Source of the DNA: Pseudovirgaria hyperparasitica
Lineage: Eukaryota; Ascomycota; Dothideomycetes; Acrospermales; Acrospermaceae
Direction: 5' to 3'
DNA: 64,000 nt
Assembly (NCBI RefSeq): GCF_010093815.1
Contig: NW_022985554.1
Coordinates: forward strand, 94,999 to 158,998
Below are positions 52,344 to 60,945 of the stretch, piece after piece. Within the stretch, counting starts at the first letter, position 1; each line of letters begins with the position of its first letter. Under the pieces are notes generated by a model, which was not told where the DNA came from, did not search any database, and worked only from the letters and a program-made list of their open reading frames with translations. Both the position numbers and the translations under genes were made by a program.

Positions 52344-52808
52344 TTACATGACGACGCAGGAATTGTGATTACCACCTACAGGCCCGCCTCGGGGGCGGAC
52401 AGCGGGGGCGGCAATGTCTTCGTTGACGTCTGCCTCGTTGACGGAACGAGTGACGGATTCGATGACTGTGAGGGGGTCTTCGGGGGTGCGTTCGTGAAGG
52501 CTGGTGGGTGGGTGTGTCAGTATGTCTACTTCGAAGGTGGGGACAAGGAAGCAAAGAGAGGAGGAAGGGAGTCCACGGTGGAATCTAGGTATCCGAGGTG
52601 CTTCATATTGGATAGTTTGATGATGTGATGATGTAGGCTATGCATATCCCTTGGATAGTAGGAGGATAATGATAGGAAAGAATACATACTCTGCAATAGG
52701 GACATCAGCATCGACAAGGTCCCTGGTAGAGAACGGCAGAGCGTTATCGAGGGCGGCGGCCTCGACAGCACGAACGGCGTGCGAGGCTTGAACGGCGGGA
52801 AGATACAT
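52344..52808 (-). CDS. 91-aa protein ending in CaaX box CVVM
   Basis: The exons are 52,690-52,808 and 52,344-52,500, giving 91 aa. The 189-bp intron runs from GA|GTATGT to CCACCAG with a textbook branch ACTGAC 16 bp before the acceptor. The start is in a good context (TTCACCATG). The chain is MYLPAVQASHAVRAVEAAAL..., acidic in the middle (EADVNEDIAAP), and ends RGGPVGGNHNSCVVM. CVVM is a canonical farnesylation box and is also the ending of known Pezizomycotina a-type pheromone precursors such as Neurospora MFA-1. Those are usually shorter (about 25-35 aa), so this could be a long pro-form or another prenylated small protein. A GA/CT tract about 90-135 bp upstream of the ATG and long empty flanks suggest a well expressed gene with long UTRs. 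An alternative acceptor would give a different tail without CaaX. Confidence 0.6.
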
Positions 52809-53978
52809 GGTGAATAATTCTGTTCTTCTAGTCGTCGTGGTATTGATAATTGAAGCGGGGATGTTGAGATACAGAGTATGATATCTTTCCTCGAGAGCAA
52901 AGAGAGAGAGAGAAAGAGAGAAAGAGAGAGAGAGAGGGAGAGTCGGAGAAATAGAGATAGAGGATGAGTAAGACAAGATCTCGAGATCTAGATATAGAAA
53001 ATTTGTCCGCGTGCTTGTTTGAGCCAGCCAGAACAAGGACCCGTCCTTTGCAGCAGTTTTAATACCTTTCTTTCAGAGAGAGAGAGAGTGGTTCTGTACC
53101 GTCTCGATCCAGATACGGAGCTGAGATCGTGAACGGATCAAGATTGGGATGGGTTTGGAAAGGAGATCCTGAGATCTGTCTGTAATCTGGGTTGAGGAAT
53201 GGGAGCCAGGCCCAGGGGCTGCCGATTTTCGACCCATGCTCTATGCTCTACGACTCAATACCTGCGACCCTGGCGGCGTCAATACTATGGTGGCAATCTG
53301 CAAACATGCTTGTGGATCCGCAGAACAATACGAAGAGGTCCGCATGAGCCTGTTATTGTTGACTCGAAATTGACAGTGGCGAAAGGCAAAGTATGAGCCC
53401 GCTGTCGACACGGAATGAGTGAGGCAGCATATGCAAATGCGAGGCTAAAAGATAAGTAACGATCAGCCTTGTTGTTTGGGTGATACCACCAATAATGTCT
53501 GTTTCGTAGAAGAGTTGCCTTAATCAGGCGTATCAGGCTCCAGTACCGCAACTAACGCCATACATCCTAGTGTTGAGCTCATTAGTCGAGAATGAAGGTT
53601 GAAATCAGCGTGAGGAATGGAGGGTGGGATGGTCTGGTGATTTGACCAAGGCCTCATCGTCGTCATGGTTCCATCCTTTGGATGTTGTTGTCAAGCCCGT
53701 TGGCTCGAGCACCGTTCTTAGTATTGTTCCCCATGTCGCCAACACCACACTAGCCCCAATCCAGCAATCAGATGCTGGTATGCTCAGTCGCATAACATGC
53801 AGAGTCGAGGATGTGATCTATAACGTCGCATAGACTTCAAGGATTATGTGTGATTTGATGTGGGTATTTGTGTATCTGCTACTCGTAGACCATCAAGCCA
53901 AGGATGGCTGCTCCAGCCAGTCTCATCATGTGTCAACGTCGGCCTGCCCAACATGCAGCATGCTTTCCACCATTTGGC
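52809..53978. other. Upstream region of CaaX gene / 3' flank of PLD
   Basis: This 1.17 kb has no recognised gene. It contains the GA/CT tract at about 52,899-52,943 and a shorter one near 53,076-53,091. Confidence 0.5.
52899..52943. repeat. GA/CT simple-sequence tract
   Basis: This is an impure (GA)n run, read as CT-rich on the coding (minus) strand just upstream of the CaaX gene. CT-rich tracts are common in promoters and 5' UTRs of strongly expressed fungal genes. Confidence 0.85.
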
Positions 53979-56900
53979 TCAAGTATAGACCTCTTCGGTG
54001 AAGGCATTCAAGCCGAGACCTTCCTTGGCAATGTCCTCTTCCTTGAGGAAAAGTAATGGCATCTCCACCAACGTGCCCTTGATCGTACTGAGAATCTCCT
54101 TGACTTCCTTGACACCCTGTTCACCAGGGGGGAATTCCTCCGCCACAACATGTCCCCACTTGTACTTACTTGGTTTCTTCTCTTTGTTGTCACCGTCCTG
54201 TTCGTGGAAGAAGCGTTCGTAGTACTCATCATACTGCTTCCAATTTCGGACCGAGTCGCTAGGCACGGGGTGGAATACGCGGCCAAAGGCATCAGTATTG
54301 GCCCGGGCGCGCTGGTTCCAGAAATTCAAGAACTCGTCAGATAAGGGATCAGTCACCAAGATATCTTCGTACGAGCCCCAGTCGTAGATGTTTGGGACCC
54401 CAATCGGTTCATAATTCTGATCCGGGTGATCCATGACTTGTGGCTTAAGTAGTCCAAGATGCTTTCGGAAGATCTGTCTTCGCAGACTTGAAGCAAAACG
54501 CGACCCTCGCCACGGCCTGCCATCCATGAGTCCCTCCACTGGAGTTGGATCGTTGACAACGATTGCAATTTCAGAGTCATGATCACCCAGCTGAGAGCGA
54601 TCGTTAAGATTTGCTGAGCCACAAATGACAATTCGGTCATCAGCGATGAGGAGCTTTTTACATGTCAGCTGGCCAAATCGCCTACAAAGCTGGTAGAGAC
54701 ATACCTTGGAATGGACGTAGAGTTCTTCGCTCACGAATGCGTCAATCTCATCCATTGCACCATGTTCCCATGGTACATTGCGAATATCTTCACCACCAAG
54801 CATGTAGCACTCAGATACGCTGTCCCACCTGCCACCAGCCAAGCCCTTTCGATCAGAGATGCCCTGAGCCCCTTGTTGATACTGCTGGTATGCGTCCCCG
54901 CCCAACCCGCGCGAGCAATTTCCGTCCATTTCATGGACATTACCAGGAATACTAGCCGGAGCCTGTGACTGGTAACTTTTGTAATTACTCTCCTGAGAGT
55001 ATTGCGCCGGCCCAGTATGGTCAGATCCGTTTGCAGGCATTCCTGGTCGATAAGCTTGGTATGTTGTCTGGTTGTCTGATGCATAAACGCCTCCAAAGGC
55101 CGCGTCGTGCTCCTTGCGGGCGTCTTCATACCTGACACCGCTCTGTTTCTCAGCTTGCGCCATGACGCCGCTGACATTGATTCGATCATAGCTTCGAAGG
55201 TTGTAGAATCTGATGTATTCCATCGGGTTAAATCCCTGTTGGGCGATCCTCTCGTAGATACTGTTTCCCCCTCGATTGATCGAATCATACTGAAACTCCA
55301 TAATGGCCCTCGTGCTCAATGCATCGTCGGACTTGAGATCGCCTGCAAAGGCAGGGACTGCTGGAATGACAATGATCATTTTGTACTTTTCACCTTTCCT
55401 TGCTGCTCTGAGAATACGTTCGACCATGGCTTCACCAATCTTGTTTTTGATGGGCCTCTGTTTGTCGCCAGTCGCAGTGATGAAGAATTGGTTCTCAATA
55501 TACACAAAATGCTCGCTGTTACGAATTACCTCGCAATAAGCGTTCTGAATGGAGTGCTGCGACGTGTCAGTAAGTGTGACATGGCCTAGATAGTATACTT
55601 ACCTCGAGGCCACCGCCGTGGCTCCATTTGGCGCAACTTCTTGTGATCTGACAAGATGTCCCGCCTGGACCTTGAGAGCTTGTTGGCCGTGAAACGCCAT
55701 AGTGACTTCCGATACGGTGCTCGACATGCTGGAAGCCCTGATTCAAGCGATCCTGAAGTTGCCCACGCAGGCCGCCTTGATCCTGACCATGACTCTGTGC
55801 GAGGCCGAAGATGCCACGTTCACCTTCACCGCCGAAACCGCGTTCTTCGCCTTCGACGTCTCTTTGCTGCCCTTGAGGTGTAGCGCTGACAGTTGTAGCT
55901 CTCTCCGGAAGGAGAGCATAACGAGGATCTTTGTGGGAGTACTTCTCTTTGAACAAAAAATTCCAACGCTGACTGAAGTGGCTTTTCAAATCTTCCACAG
56001 CGGGACCTGTCAAGCAAAGAGACACATCGGACCATCCCATACGCGAGCTTTTCGTACGATCCAATTTATTGTTCTCCCAATTCACAACGTCCTGGAAGTC
56101 CATGATTCGGGCGTTGTTATAGTCCTGTCCAGGGAAGACGATATTGTCTAGATCCCCAGGGTGGGCATCCGATATTGGGTGCTGGTTAGTGTCCCAGCGA
56201 CCGTAGCAGAGGTCAAGTCCACCCATGAAGGCAGTGCGGCCATCGATAAGGCAAAGTTTCTCATGATGCGCCCAATAGAGGACTGTGCCTTCGTGTACCC
56301 CATATATTCCTTCTATGGTTTGTCCTGGTAGTTTTGCTATTGAGGCTGCTGAAAGAGAGAGGTTCTGCAGTGAGCTTAGAAAGGACGACGTGAGAACCTT
56401 TTGGTCCGGTAGATGGTCGGGGTGCCGGAACACAGCAATGTTGGGATGCAAATCTTCGAGTGCATGTTTGGTATGCGATGAGGACACTGTGAGAGGGGGA
56501 GCTATCAGCGGATTGTCCTTCTCCCATTGTTCCAAGGAATTGAATATGACATCCAAGCCCACCCGCGATATGAATTTAGTAATACGATCGGTGGTTTTAG
56601 GAAGTAGGGAGTGGAGGTAATCGGGCAGCGTGGGATTCAGCAACTTACGGGTGAGAGCTTGGGTGACCTTTTAAAATGATTAGCATACACAACTTGGCGG
56701 GCACTCGTTGACTGACCTCTTTATAGACTATAATGTTGACTTTCACACCTCTTTCTGCGGCCGCTTTGAGCATGCGGTCTACCCGGTATTGCTGATTCTT
56801 TGCTGGAGGGCGTCTGAGATATAGCTCAGGTGAGAGCCACCCTGGAAATGTCAGCCATTGCATAAGTCCTATTGAAAGGTAACCGACAATCGAGAATCCA

Positions 56901-57435
56901 GATTGATTCCCTAGCACGTTCCAGAGCCACCGAAACTGCCCACATGTAGCCACAGCCGTCAACATACCACTTTATATCATTTCCGCCAGTTCGCTCCGGT
57001 GCAAAACTGTTGAAGCGATTGCCCGTGGTCGAGTCGGTGCTGGGGTTAGCAGGTGCTCCGCTCGTTGGCCTTTGTTGATTATTAGACAGTCTCTCTTTCA
57101 CTTCTGAGCCTAGACCATGGACAAGGCCGTGGGCTTTGTCAAATAACGAGGACATGCCTCCTGAAGGTTTCTCTGGGCCTGGCTGCTCGCCATATGCTAG
57201 GTGAGGTTGGTATTGCTGAGTGACACTCTACATAGCATCATCGTAAGCATTGGGTCATTGTTGACGTTCAAGAGCGGTTGCAGCATACTGTATCGCCCTG
57301 CTGAGGCTTCTTGCCTCCGCCGAAGAAGCGTCTTCCCACATCACCGATAAAGCCTCGTTCGCCGTCCGTTGACTGGGCATCTCCGTGGAATTCGCCATAG
57401 GCCAGATTATCATCATGATCGCTGTGTCGCGACAT
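53979..57435 (-). CDS. Phospholipase D, 7 exons
   Basis: The exons are 57,289-57,435, 56,888-57,227, 56,717-56,841, 56,649-56,667 (only 19 nt), 55,603-56,486, 54,705-55,556 and 53,979-54,653, giving 1,013 aa. Both HKD motifs are intact once introns are removed: HHEKLCLID (His285, Lys287, Asp292) and VHSKLLIAD (His787, Lys789, Asp794), each with its GGLDL or GSANLNDRS companion. The enzyme cleaves phosphatidylcholine to phosphatidic acid by the two-HKD mechanism. The N-terminus has a Gly-rich, disordered lead (GERGFIGDVGRRFFGGGK), and I see no PX or PH domain, so it resembles the shorter Aspergillus PldA-type enzymes more than yeast Spo14. A poorly conserved Gln/Tyr/Gly-rich insert sits between the two HKDs. 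Introns of 51 and 162 bp are multiples of three and lack stops. Confidence 0.9.
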
Positions 57436-58199
57436 GATGAGAAAGTCTTGGCGTGTATAGATAAGGGCTTATTGAGCCATTGAGAGCAAAGCGCGGATAG
57501 AAAGTCGGGCACGCTTGAGGAGATCGGTGGTGGACTAGTTATCAAGGTTGCTGGTGATGGTATTGCGAAGATGAACTAATTACAGTAATCACCTAGTACC
57601 TCTAGACGCATGCCTGGAAGGACGGACAAGGTGCCAGCGAGTGCCACAAGCTGAACTGCCCCTCTCTGCCCCGCCATCAAGCAGCTATCAGGGTGCCCAA
57701 AGTCGTCGACATCAACACCATACTGGCTCCATCCACATAGACATACAAGAGATTGCAACATGCATCAATCACTGACGTTACCAAGTAGTTACATAGGTCA
57801 ATAGCTAACCAGTAGACGAATCCATCATTGTGACCGGATCTCATGGATCGTGATAGACAGCTACGTAGGCAGTCAGTCCCTCTTCTCGTCAGCCAAGCGG
57901 AGCCACGCCCAACTTCGCTTCGTTTTTGCCTATCATCGCCGTCATTAATACCGCTTTGCTACTTCATGGCTTGAGGGGAGATCGTTGAAGATAATTAGGT
58001 CGTAGTCACAATCACAGTCACAATCACCACTCATCTCATATCAATCGCGCCGTTCTCGACTAATCGAATCAATCGATTGACTTGCAACCTGTAGCACTTA
58101 ATTACTGTAATCAGTTATATCCCGGATAAGTCTTTCGTTCGACCCGCTCGGCCGCTTCTCGACTCTATAAAAGTCCTCCACTCCTCCATTGTTACCACG
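57436..58199. other. Shared PLD/cyanase upstream region
   Basis: These 764 bp lie between divergent start codons. Short open frames on the minus strand (57,255-57,761) are not supported as genes; part of one overlaps PLD exon 1. No regulatory site is claimed. Confidence 0.5.
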
Positions 58200-58924
58200 A
58201 TGCCTCTCTTTACCCGCTTTGCATCTCATTCCTTGGCTTCGTCATCTACTTTATTCATCAAACAGGCTCCTCGTATCGTCGCATATCAACCCTTTCGCCG
58301 CATAGTCACTCAGCCTTCTTCCAACATGGCCGACGCAACAGCAGCTCCTGCACTTGCTACCCTTGATGTGGCTTTGCCGATCCCAAGCTCAAGTGACCAT
58401 GGAAGCTGACAATTCACATAGGCTTCTCTCATCCCTCGTCTCCCCGTATGGTGCCCAACTGTTTTCGAGGCCAAGAAGAAGCTGAATCTGTCGTTTGCCG
58501 ACATTGCCAAGGAAGTCGGCCGTGACGAGGTTGCCATTGCTGCTCTTTTTTACGGTCAGGCCAATGCCTCGCCAAAGGATATCGAGGTGCTCGCAAAGGT
58601 CCTCCAGATCCCAGAAGCCATCCTCCAGGATCAAATGAGTGGTCTCCCAGATCGTGGCAGGGCTGTTGACATGCCTCCCAAGGACCCTCTCATCTACCGT
58701 CTGTACGAAATCGTTCAGAACTACGGTTACGCCTACAAGGCCGTGCTAAACGAGAAATTCGGTGACGGCATCATGAGCGCCATCTCGTTTTCAACAAAGG
58801 TAGAAAAGGAAACTGATGACAAGGGCGACTGGGTCAAGATTACCCTCAGAGGCAAATGGTGAGTCTGCTTAGCCTTCGAATGAACTTTACTGAGCAGCAC
58901 AGGCTTCCATACACCAGATTTTAG
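58200..58924 (+). CDS. cyn1: Cyanate hydratase (cyanase) with N-terminal extension
   Basis: The exons are 58,200-58,367, 58,422-58,858 and 58,903-58,924, giving 208 aa. Introns are 54 bp (GTGGCT to CATAG, branch GCTGAC) and 44 bp (GTGAGT to CACAG). The last exon adds the tail WLPYTRF, matching the family's usual LRGKWLPFSRF ending. The N-terminal half is the helical domain ([30 protein letters not shown]). The C-terminal catalytic part has [32 protein letters not shown] with the Arg, Glu and Ser that form the active site in the decamer. The enzyme turns cyanate plus bicarbonate into ammonia and carbon dioxide. Usual fungal cyanases are about 160 aa. Here 42 extra residues precede a second Met (MADATAA), and they are rich in Arg/Ser with no acid, like a mitochondrial presequence. 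Two forms from two starts are possible. Confidence 0.93.
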
Positions 58925-59416
58925 TTAGATATGAGTTGTGAAGGTTGTTTAGAACAACTTTCGTCACATAAAAATGTAGAGCTATGACCACTTACCAGAT
59001 TTTATACTGTGTTAGAACTAGTAAACGTCCCGGCTTTTATATTCTTTTATTCGTCTGATCCCCCTCTGTTTGTGTTCTTCACGTCGCCTTTTCATATATG
59101 TCTAGAAGTGTTATTCCAAGTTAGTCTAAGCGCTGTTTTCGTTTCTGGAAGCTCTTGAATGGAGCAGCAACAACTAACATCCTCTGTTGTTCACTTCACA
59201 TATCCAGTCGTATCACTCATCTCTCCATATACTTACCTATCCTAGTTGCCACGTTTTGAGGTAGCAGTATCTATACGCACGTCCCATGTCCCATTGAGAC
59301 TGGCTGATAAGCTGTCGTTCATACAAAGATGGGTGTCCCTATTGATAGCATCCCTCTTACAACCTTTTCCCCTTGTCTACTATTGTGATATCTGTAACTG
59401 AGAATATCATTTACAA
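58925..59416. other. Intergenic region
   Basis: This 492 bp holds the cyanase 3' UTR and the promoter of the next gene. Nothing else is recognised. Confidence 0.5.
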
Positions 59417-60017
59417 ATGGAGTTCAACGCATCCAGAGATGGCGAACCAGGCCTAAGCCGTCACAGGACCAATACTATGTCTACCGACGATACCTCGACC
59501 ACCCCTGGCTCTCCCTCGTATCTATTGTCGCCGTCTTCGTCCACAAGCTACTTCGACCTCCCTTCGTTCCCACCAACCAGACGAATCTCCCAGATCGGCT
59601 GGGGTGAACCTGACAGCCCCGACCGTAGCTTCGCGTCCCCACGCTTCGCCGGTGGTGAATGTGTTGCGACCATGGCTGAACGTAAGCGCGCAATACGCGA
59701 GAGACTACAAGCTGAATTCTACACCCGGCCAAACGAGTGTAAGTCGTGATCAAAGGACAACCATGAATGTGCACTTAACCAATTCTACAGCTCAAGCTTC
59801 GTCCCAAGAGTGTCTTACAAAGATTACCACGAGCGAAAGCCCCGAACAGCACCACGGTGAAGAAGTCACTGAGCAATCGCGTCGCCGCAAGCGCAAGGGC
59901 AGCTTTATTAAACTTGTGAAGAAACTCGTTACTGCTGGCACGTCGCCTAGACATTCTTCCATATCCATTCACTTACAATCAACAGCGGCCACAAGCACCC
60001 GCGAGCCACTCCTCTGA
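59417..60017 (+). CDS. Unknown small basic protein
   Basis: The exons are 59,417-59,738 and 59,791-60,017, giving 182 aa, joined by a 52-bp intron (GTAAGT to TACAG, branch-like CTTAAC). I do not recognise the family. Residues ~20-75 are Ser/Thr/Pro-rich with a TSYFDLPSFPP motif. A predicted helix follows (MAERKRAIRERLQAEF). The second exon contains a strongly basic patch (SRRRKRKGSFIKLVKKLV) that could be a nuclear signal or a membrane-contact amphipathic helix. There are no transmembrane segments. It is oriented the same way as cyanase and the zinc-finger gene, with ordinary intergenic gaps. The clean splice junction and kept frame support a real gene. Confidence 0.65.
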
Positions 60018-60945
60018 AGTCACTCTTGCTGAGGGGATTATTGTGATGTAATCACACTGTCATCGTATCAAAGATGCGCTCTTCAAGAGATAAACTGACG
60101 GGAAGCAGATCTGTCGAGCCCCAAAATCCTTGCCATGTATGGCTTCTCCAGCCTCCATAACCACTTCTATATCGCATATTCCGCCGGAGTGTCGAGAATA
60201 TCTCGCGTCACATCACATTACGTACAACCACGTCTTGCAACGCTATACTTACCCTATCTGTACTCTCTATTTGGGAAAAAATTACTCGTCTCATCGAGAC
60301 GTGCTATATGAAAGCTTTATCTACCCTGTTTGGATCCATGGTTAGTAGTAAGGTAGTTGCTAACGTCAACCTGGACACAGGGCGGTAGCGCCCCTCTACA
60401 TACGTGTTGAACACTTTGGTATATGGAGCTCAGGGGAAAATCCACATTAGTTCTATTGCGTTCAACTTTCAAGGTGTTTCCCTTGGTCATTCTCGTTCCG
60501 TCTTATGCAACGTGCAACTAAATTTTTGACATTCGTACTCTTTGTTCACGTCCATAACCGTGAACATCTCAACTCAATTTCAAGTCTCGATAAGTAAATT
60601 TCGAACATACTCCGAGTTCCTTAGTCTTAAGGTTAACTTAAGTAAGGTTAGAGGATTCATGTAGACCGAGACAGCAATGCCTTCGTAGCATAAGATTGTC
60701 GCTGTTCTTTAGTAGATTACAAGGTGATAGGTACGCTATTGTGCATCGTTCTTTATAGCCTCAATTCACTCCTAACTGCTCGGTATCGATTCAAGTTGTG
60801 ACTCTGGAGCTTACATGGGCAACAACGAACGACACACTGATAACCCCGCACTTCGAACTACTATAGCCTCAAGTTTGTTCACTCTCAATCCAGGATCGAG
60901 TCAAACACTGCCTAGCTGAGCCCGTGCACGGTTCAAGTCTTTCAT
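60018..60945. other. Intergenic region
   Basis: These 928 bp are without a supported gene. A 71-codon open frame at 60,130-60,345 has no recognisable content. Confidence 0.5.

What the first reader, a model, noticed from the sequence alone, without database searches (positions are those of the whole stretch)
52344..52808. Possible unusual lipopeptide pheromone precursor ending CVVM
A two-exon gene with a perfect branch point and acceptor encodes 91 aa ending NHNSCVVM. CVVM is the CaaX ending of known Pezizomycotina a-type pheromones, but those precursors are much shorter and usually have an aromatic residue before the Cys. This one has an acidic pro-region and a GGPVGGNHNSC tail. It may be a long-form pheromone precursor or an undescribed prenylated small protein. 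It lies in a gene-poor stretch, with about 3.6 kb empty downstream and 1.2 kb upstream.
Basis: partly seen in the sequence, partly recalled or inferred. Interest (0 to 1): 0.72.

Follow-up and report, generated by a model that had tools for sequence, protein, structure and literature searches.

The report
Small farnesylated fungal protein ending CVVM
A fungal genome carries a well-formed gene for a 91-residue acidic protein whose last four residues mark it for a lipid tail; it could be a long-sought lipid-tailed mating signal, but that is not shown and a plain membrane-anchored small protein is somewhat more likely.

Summary
On the minus strand, 52808..52690 + 52500..52344 (intron GTATGT…TACTGAC…CAG) encode 91 aa ending RGGPVGGNHNSCVVM. 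It is more than chance: 0 of 5000 shuffles reach either exon's coding score; it is the only CaaX end among 48 strict two-exon models in the window; and it has the best coding score of 71 C-[TAIVM]-[IVM]-M-stop sites in the 35-Mb genome. No relative was found, but no fungal collection was available, so conservation is untested. The genome has MAT1-1-1, STE2 and STE3 (29, 73, 27), a separate G-gamma (56), and one contiguous GYCx-aliphatic-M end, GYCDMM (26). MAT flanks resemble Botryosphaeriaceae (Dothideomycetes); my literature listings showed no a-factor for that class. The protein shares CaaX, small size and no evident signal peptide with a-factors; it lacks the GY motif, the S/T-rich N-terminus and EBP2 as neighbour. 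Two other tiny CaaX ORFs compete. Verdict: a real-looking, undescribed, probably farnesylated small protein; pheromone precursor about one in three.

The parts
52690..52808 (-). Exon 1 of the 91-aa protein (start codon at 52808; 39 codons plus 2 bases)
   Evidence: coding score 0.26 bits/codon, 0 of 5000 shuffles reach it
52501..52689 (-). Intron, 189 nt: GTATGT donor, TACTGAC branch, CAG acceptor, one in-frame stop inside
   Evidence: Sequence; not confirmed by RNA
52344..52500 (-). Exon 2, ending RGGPVGGNHNSCVVM-stop
   Evidence: best coding score of 71 C-[TAIVM]-[IVM]-M-stop sites in the genome; 0 of 5000 shuffles
52344..52358 (-). CaaX box CVVM plus stop; Met at the last position suggests a farnesyl group
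   Evidence: Pattern hit G000:C6:147342-147356; the Met-to-farnesyl reading as stated in PMC3068285 (passage seen)
52809..53200 (-). Leader and promoter side: no upstream ATG in 392 nt, long CT tract (about 52897-52944), TATTAAAA motif near 53060
   Evidence: sequence only
53979..57435 (-). Upstream neighbour on the same strand: phospholipase D gene (several exons)
   Evidence: PLDc Pfam matches on 53979-55505 and 55567-56643; outer limit by eye

Best explanation
A real, single-copy, two-exon gene makes a 91-residue acidic protein (pI about 4.5). Cytosolic farnesyltransferase is expected to attach a farnesyl group to Cys88, after which VVM is removed and the cysteine methylated. The likeliest fate is that the intact acidic body then stays inside the cell, held on a membrane by the lipid through a flexible Gly/Pro/Asn-rich stalk (RGGPVGGNHNS), and acts there as a small adaptor or regulator. 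Shown: gene-model quality, coding signal, the CaaX end, no strongly hydrophobic stretch, one copy found, no G-gamma match. Inferred: splicing, farnesylation, membrane location. Guessed: the adaptor role.
For: Gene model and coding signal. CVVM end. The long charged body (residues 1-76 carry about -9.5 net charge, the tail about +0.8) is more than the described Leotiomycete a-factors have (45-64 aa, PMC10569646). The maximum 15-residue Kyte-Doolittle mean is only 0.78, so there is no obvious signal peptide or transmembrane segment (no predictor was run). The genome's G-gamma protein (93 aa as I spliced it, GGL domain E 4.5e-20, ending CCIVM) is a small multi-exon CaaX protein of the kind that stays in the cell (recalled). 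PMC10569646 (section 21 read) lists 2 to 12 annotated small (<=100 aa) CaaX/CPaX genes in each of seven Leotiomycete genomes, so such genes need not be pheromones; of these, 3 of 4 B. cinerea and 2 of 12 M. fructicola proteins recurred consistently within their genera.
Against: Nothing positive shows that it stays intact or what it binds. No relative outside this genome could be sought in fungi. Apart from G-gamma and a-factors, I know of few small prenylated proteins in fungi (recalled).
Confidence: 0.5

Rival explanations
1. It is the precursor of an a-factor-type lipopeptide mating pheromone with an unusually long acidic pro-region. After farnesylation, VVM removal and methylation, an internal cut near the RPR residues releases a peptide such as GGPVGGNHNSC (11 residues), exported by a Ste6-type ABC transporter and sensed by STE3.
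For: STE3, STE2 and MAT1-1-1 are present without stops in the matched parts and imply a mating system that needs an a-type ligand. Only one contiguous GYCx-aliphatic-M-stop site exists in the genome, GYCDMM (an end split by an intron would be missed). Among the 71 C-[TAIVM]-[IVM]-M-stop sites this is the best-scoring coding end. It fits the general rules used for a-pheromones in PMC13037118 (passages seen): CaaX end, no signal peptide, 6-11 residues plus the Cys as mature peptide; the N-terminus is only weakly hydrophobic. It is under 100 aa, as in the screen of PMC10569646. U. maydis-type basidiomycete precursors also can lack an aromatic residue right next to the Cys (recalled).
Against: No GY motif, few S/T (9 of 91 residues) and 91 aa, against 45-64 aa in Leotiomycetes (PMC10569646). 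By passages of PMC3068285 the a/h-type gene area lies between cyanate lyase and EBP2 orthologues and is syntenic with N. crassa and M. grisea; here EBP2 is on another contig, C1:945 kb, and about 20 kb around it gave 7 CaaX-like ORF ends, none convincing by eye; cyanate lyase was not searched. No TGAAACA site (Ste12-type, motif recalled) in 1 kb upstream. Two other tiny CaaX ORFs compete. A canonical WCxxxGQxC alpha-factor was not recognised either (5 hits, control 3; 2 of the 5 fetched, neither a precursor by eye), so the pheromone pair of this fungus is not canonical or not recognised.
Confidence: 0.33
2. The gene model is wrong or dead: the ORFs are coding exons of something else, or splicing uses another acceptor, so that CVVM is not the true C-terminus.
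For: No RNA evidence; the 189-nt intron is long for a filamentous ascomycete (recalled); the intron length is a multiple of three.
Against: Consensus donor, branch and acceptor; both exons score as coding in the same model; an in-frame stop lies inside the intron; start context and a leader free of ATG. Only 1 of 48 strict models ends in CaaX, this one.
Confidence: 0.12
3. It is a G-protein gamma subunit.
For: Similar size, several exons, CaaX end.
Against: No Pfam match at E up to 10; a G-gamma gene is elsewhere, C11:95 kb (L062), GGL domain E 4.5e-20.
Confidence: 0.01

Closest known systems
Putative Leotiomycete a-factor, B. cinerea BCIN_13g03330 and homologues in at least 111 species (PMC10569646: abstract, passages, section 21, first part of section 27 seen)
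   Same: Small, C-terminal CaaX (CVVM in a few species).
   Different: 45-64 aa, S/T-rich N-terminus, GY near the C-terminus in 87 of them; here 91 aa, acidic, no GY. Its own authors doubt a mating role because expression was not mating-type dependent in three species.
Sordariomycete a-factors (N. crassa MFA-1 and others; sequences recalled)
   Same: CVVM end, no signal peptide.
   Different: About 20-40 aa, aromatic residue before the Cys (recalled); gene area by EBP2/cyanate lyase (PMC3068285, passages); the GY and EBP2 features are not met here.
h-type (hybrid) pheromone precursors of Hypocreales, HPP1 (PMC3068285, abstract and passages seen)
   Same: CaaX end, atypical precursor.
   Different: Three (L/I)GC(T/S)VM copies and Kex2 sites; here a single Cys.
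Fungal G-gamma (GGL domain)
   Same: About 90 aa, CaaX, introns.
   Different: No GGL match; the genome's G-gamma is a separate gene.

Membership tests
Pezizomycotina a-factor precursors | C-terminal CaaX/CPaX box | tested here: met
   CVVM-stop
Pezizomycotina a-factor precursors | Under 100 aa (screen limit) / 45-64 aa (Leotiomycete range) | tested here: inconclusive
   91 aa: inside the screen limit, outside the reported range (PMC10569646)
Pezizomycotina a-factor precursors | GY (aromatic) just before the Cys | tested here: not met
   NHNSC; the feature is not universal: 87 of at least 111 Leotiomycete ones (PMC10569646)
Pezizomycotina a-factor precursors | S/T-rich N-terminus | tested here: not met
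   9 S/T of 91; 3 in the first 39 residues
Pezizomycotina a-factor precursors | Hydrophobic N-terminus without signal peptide (PMC13037118 criterion) | tested here: inconclusive
   Max 15-residue Kyte-Doolittle mean 0.78, starting at residue 6; no signal-peptide predictor was run
Pezizomycotina a-factor precursors | Location by EBP2/cyanate lyase (Sordariomycetes) | tested here: not met
   EBP2 on C1, the window on C6; cyanate lyase not searched
Pezizomycotina a-factor precursors | Expression in and need by MAT1-2 strains | not testable with these tools
   No RNA or strains
Pezizomycotina a-factor precursors | Conservation of the C-terminal tail in relatives | not testable with these tools
   No fungal collection; IMG/VR and GTDB scans gave no relative
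h-type pheromone precursors | Three (L/I)GC(T/S)VM copies | tested here: not met
   Only one Cys in the protein
G-gamma subunit | GGL domain | tested here: not met
   No match at E up to 10; the genome's G-gamma matched at 4.5e-20
Farnesylated CaaX proteins | Cys-aliphatic-aliphatic-Met at the C-terminus | tested here: met
   CVVM
Farnesylated CaaX proteins | Actual farnesyl group | not testable with these tools
   Needs an experiment

The most novel reading that the evidence does not exclude
The protein is the a-factor of a Dothideomycete-like lineage: a long-form, intron-containing lipopeptide pheromone precursor, missed so far because it shares little but CaaX with the Sordariomycete and Leotiomycete ones.
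Probability: 0.33. Interest if true: 0.75.

Novelty: new variant of a known kind. Interest (0 to 1): 0.42.

Why it matters
STE3, the receptor for the lipid-tailed pheromone, is conserved across the Ascomycota, yet PMC10569646 (introduction and discussion passages) states that no a-factor had been found in filamentous ascomycetes outside Sordariomycetes before its own Leotiomycete candidate. This gene gives one concrete, testable candidate in a genome with both receptors. If it is not the pheromone, it is still a small prenylated fungal protein with no family found, and a warning that CVVM plus small size does not identify an a-factor.

Tried and rejected
Relatives: Pfam, PDB (best E 0.13), IMG/VR (11 pattern matches, none a relative), GTDB genome contigs (538 pattern matches, none a relative), own genome (only itself). 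The outside collections searched are viral, bacterial/archaeal and PDB, so absence says little about fungi.

Other a-factor candidates. Of the 87 pattern hits, 16 end in TGG (no stop) and were dropped; all other 71 were examined. Short open ends were scored on few codons, and a last exon of a multi-exon gene could hide among them. Of the 87 hits, the 19 that read CS[IV]M-stop were fetched and read by eye; none was convincing. The nearest is a 37-aa S/T-rich reading inside a longer open frame at C18:391774. CSMM, CCxM, CWxM and non-Met ends were not examined. The one GYCx-aliphatic-M site is GYCDMM, open for 14 codons.

L063 (40 aa) and L027 (42 aa) are complete tiny CaaX ORFs, Cys-rich and metallothionein-like to my eye; no Pfam match. 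L063 sits in a phenol/catechol breakdown cluster. Neither is excluded as the a-factor.

Alpha-factor: WCxxxGQxC gave 5 hits against 3 in the control; 2 of 5 were fetched, neither a precursor by eye. MAT1-2-1 was not searched, so self-fertility is open.

Organism: the only 5.8S locus found looks RIP-mutated to my eye, so ITS could not name it. The MAT flanks match the Botryosphaeriaceae order in PMC8905617 (passages seen); the names APC5 and APN2 are by eye, CIA30 was not looked for, and the order may occur in other groups.

Literature: searches gave no Dothideomycete a-factor in the titles and abstract openings listed. Listings were capped: 20 of 40 (13), 25 of 306 (15), 20 of 110 (70).

Full report
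What is there. The finding lies on the minus strand. Exon 1 (52808..52690) and exon 2 (52500..52344) join across a 189-nt intron with a GTATGT donor, a TACTGAC branch and a CAG acceptor, and give MYLPAVQASHAVRAVEAAALDNALPFSTRDLVDADVPIADLHERTPEDPLTVIESVTRSVNEADVNEDIAAPAVRPRGGPVGGNHNSCVVM. The intron holds an in-frame stop, so CVVM is reached from this start only if it is spliced. The start has A at -3, and 392 nt upstream contain no ATG.

Is it more than chance? A codon log-odds model trained on eight window ORFs gives 0.26 and 0.35 bits per codon for the two exons; the training ORFs themselves give 0.05-0.26. 0 of 5000 base shuffles reached either exon's score. No open window of equal length did in the two nearby intergenic stretches (0 of 1820 and 0 of 1095, overlapping), while in the unannotated stretch 57500-60900 133 of 1274 and 22 of 807 did; that stretch may contain exons. 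The antisense frame of exon 1 is also open and scores as high (0.27), that of exon 2 less (0.20); that antisense frame shows no ATG over the gene until its last codons before a stop. Of 48 strict two-exon models on both strands of the window, one ends in a CaaX-like motif. In the genome (35.0 Mb, 59 contigs) 87 places match the pattern for C-[TAIVM]-[IVM]-M followed by TRR; 71 of these end in a stop, and this one has the highest coding score of the 71, 0.35 against 0.32 for the next. The total (37 + 50) is above but near that of the reversed control pattern (37 + 25), so the motif as such is mostly noise and the coding context is what counts.

What it is not. No Pfam family at E up to 10 and no convincing PDB relative (best E 0.13). 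It is not a recognisable G-gamma: that gene is at C11:95 kb, with GGL E 4.5e-20. It has a single Cys, so it is not an h-type precursor (PMC3068285). Only one copy was found in the genome.

The pheromone question. The genome carries MAT1-1-1, STE2 and STE3. A search for the GYCx-aliphatic-M end typical of described a-factors returned one site, GYCDMM. That leaves room for an unrecognised a-factor, and this gene is the leading Met-ending candidate by gene quality. Against it: no GY, few S/T, 91 aa, EBP2 on another contig, and no convincing CaaX gene near EBP2. No TGAAACA site was found in 1 kb upstream; two CTTTG and two CAAAG cores were present, as such short motifs are by chance. Two other tiny CaaX ORFs exist, L063 (MPPST..., 40 aa, CVVM) and L027 (MPES..., 42 aa, CTIM), which have the S/T-rich start this one lacks but are Cys-rich. 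L063 lies among phenol hydroxylase, catechol dioxygenase and lactonase-fold genes. A canonical alpha-factor was also not recognised, so failure of canonical patterns is a weak argument here.

Which fungus. The MAT flanks are a COX6A ORF (E 1.4e-27), an endonuclease-fold ORF read as APN2, a TPR ORF read as APC5, and on the other side a PH-domain protein with a weak, sub-cut-off MMM1/SMP match. PMC8905617 (passages seen) gives APN2, CoxVIa, APC5, CIA30 and a PH/DUF2404 membrane protein as the flanks in most Botryosphaeriaceae. I infer a Dothideomycete; the family is not claimed. PMC10569646 says a-factors had not been found outside Sordariomycetes before its own Leotiomycete candidate, and my searches (capped listings) showed no Dothideomycete one.

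Mechanism. Expected from the CaaX box: farnesylation at Cys88, removal of VVM, methylation. Then either the acidic body stays tethered through the Gly/Pro/Asn stalk (0.5), or the last 8-12 residues are cut out near RPR and exported as a lipopeptide (0.33). The two can be told apart by the pattern of conservation, by mating-type expression and by deletion. The weights are judgement: small CaaX genes are several per genome (2-12 in seven Leotiomycetes, PMC10569646), and the tested a-factor features beyond CaaX were mostly not met.

Noticed in passing
L116/L063, G000:C11:437395-437514 (minus): A 40-aa Cys-rich ORF (MPPSTASSIISIIKPAGPKTSCGESCECCGCDESCWCVVM) with CaaX end sits beside phenol hydroxylase, catechol dioxygenase and lactonase-fold genes; a TATAAA motif lies upstream and only one copy was found.
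   Followed up: partly
L027, G000:C4:about 1249530-1249658 (plus): A 42-aa ORF of similar style (MPESIKPASTSTASITKIKTPVKLPCYCGDDCQCCVIPCTIM), Cys-rich with a CaaX end, in a stretch with few long ORFs, some kilobases from a fungal transcription-factor ORF.
   Followed up: partly
L003 2200-3700, G000:C40: The only 5.8S/ITS copy found appears mutated C to T and G to A throughout, as if hit by RIP; judged by eye.
   Followed up: no
window 1-28000: GC is about 27-42% with no ORF of 150 aa or more, then rises to about 50% past 28 kb: a RIP-like AT-rich block bordering the gene-rich part.
   Followed up: no
L040 7039-8430, G000:C9: A 463-aa open frame between the APN2-like ORF and MAT1-1-1 has no Pfam match: a possible MAT-associated gene.
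   Followed up: partly
G000 whole genome: STE2 is present but no tandem WCxxxGQxC alpha-factor units were recognised.
   Followed up: partly
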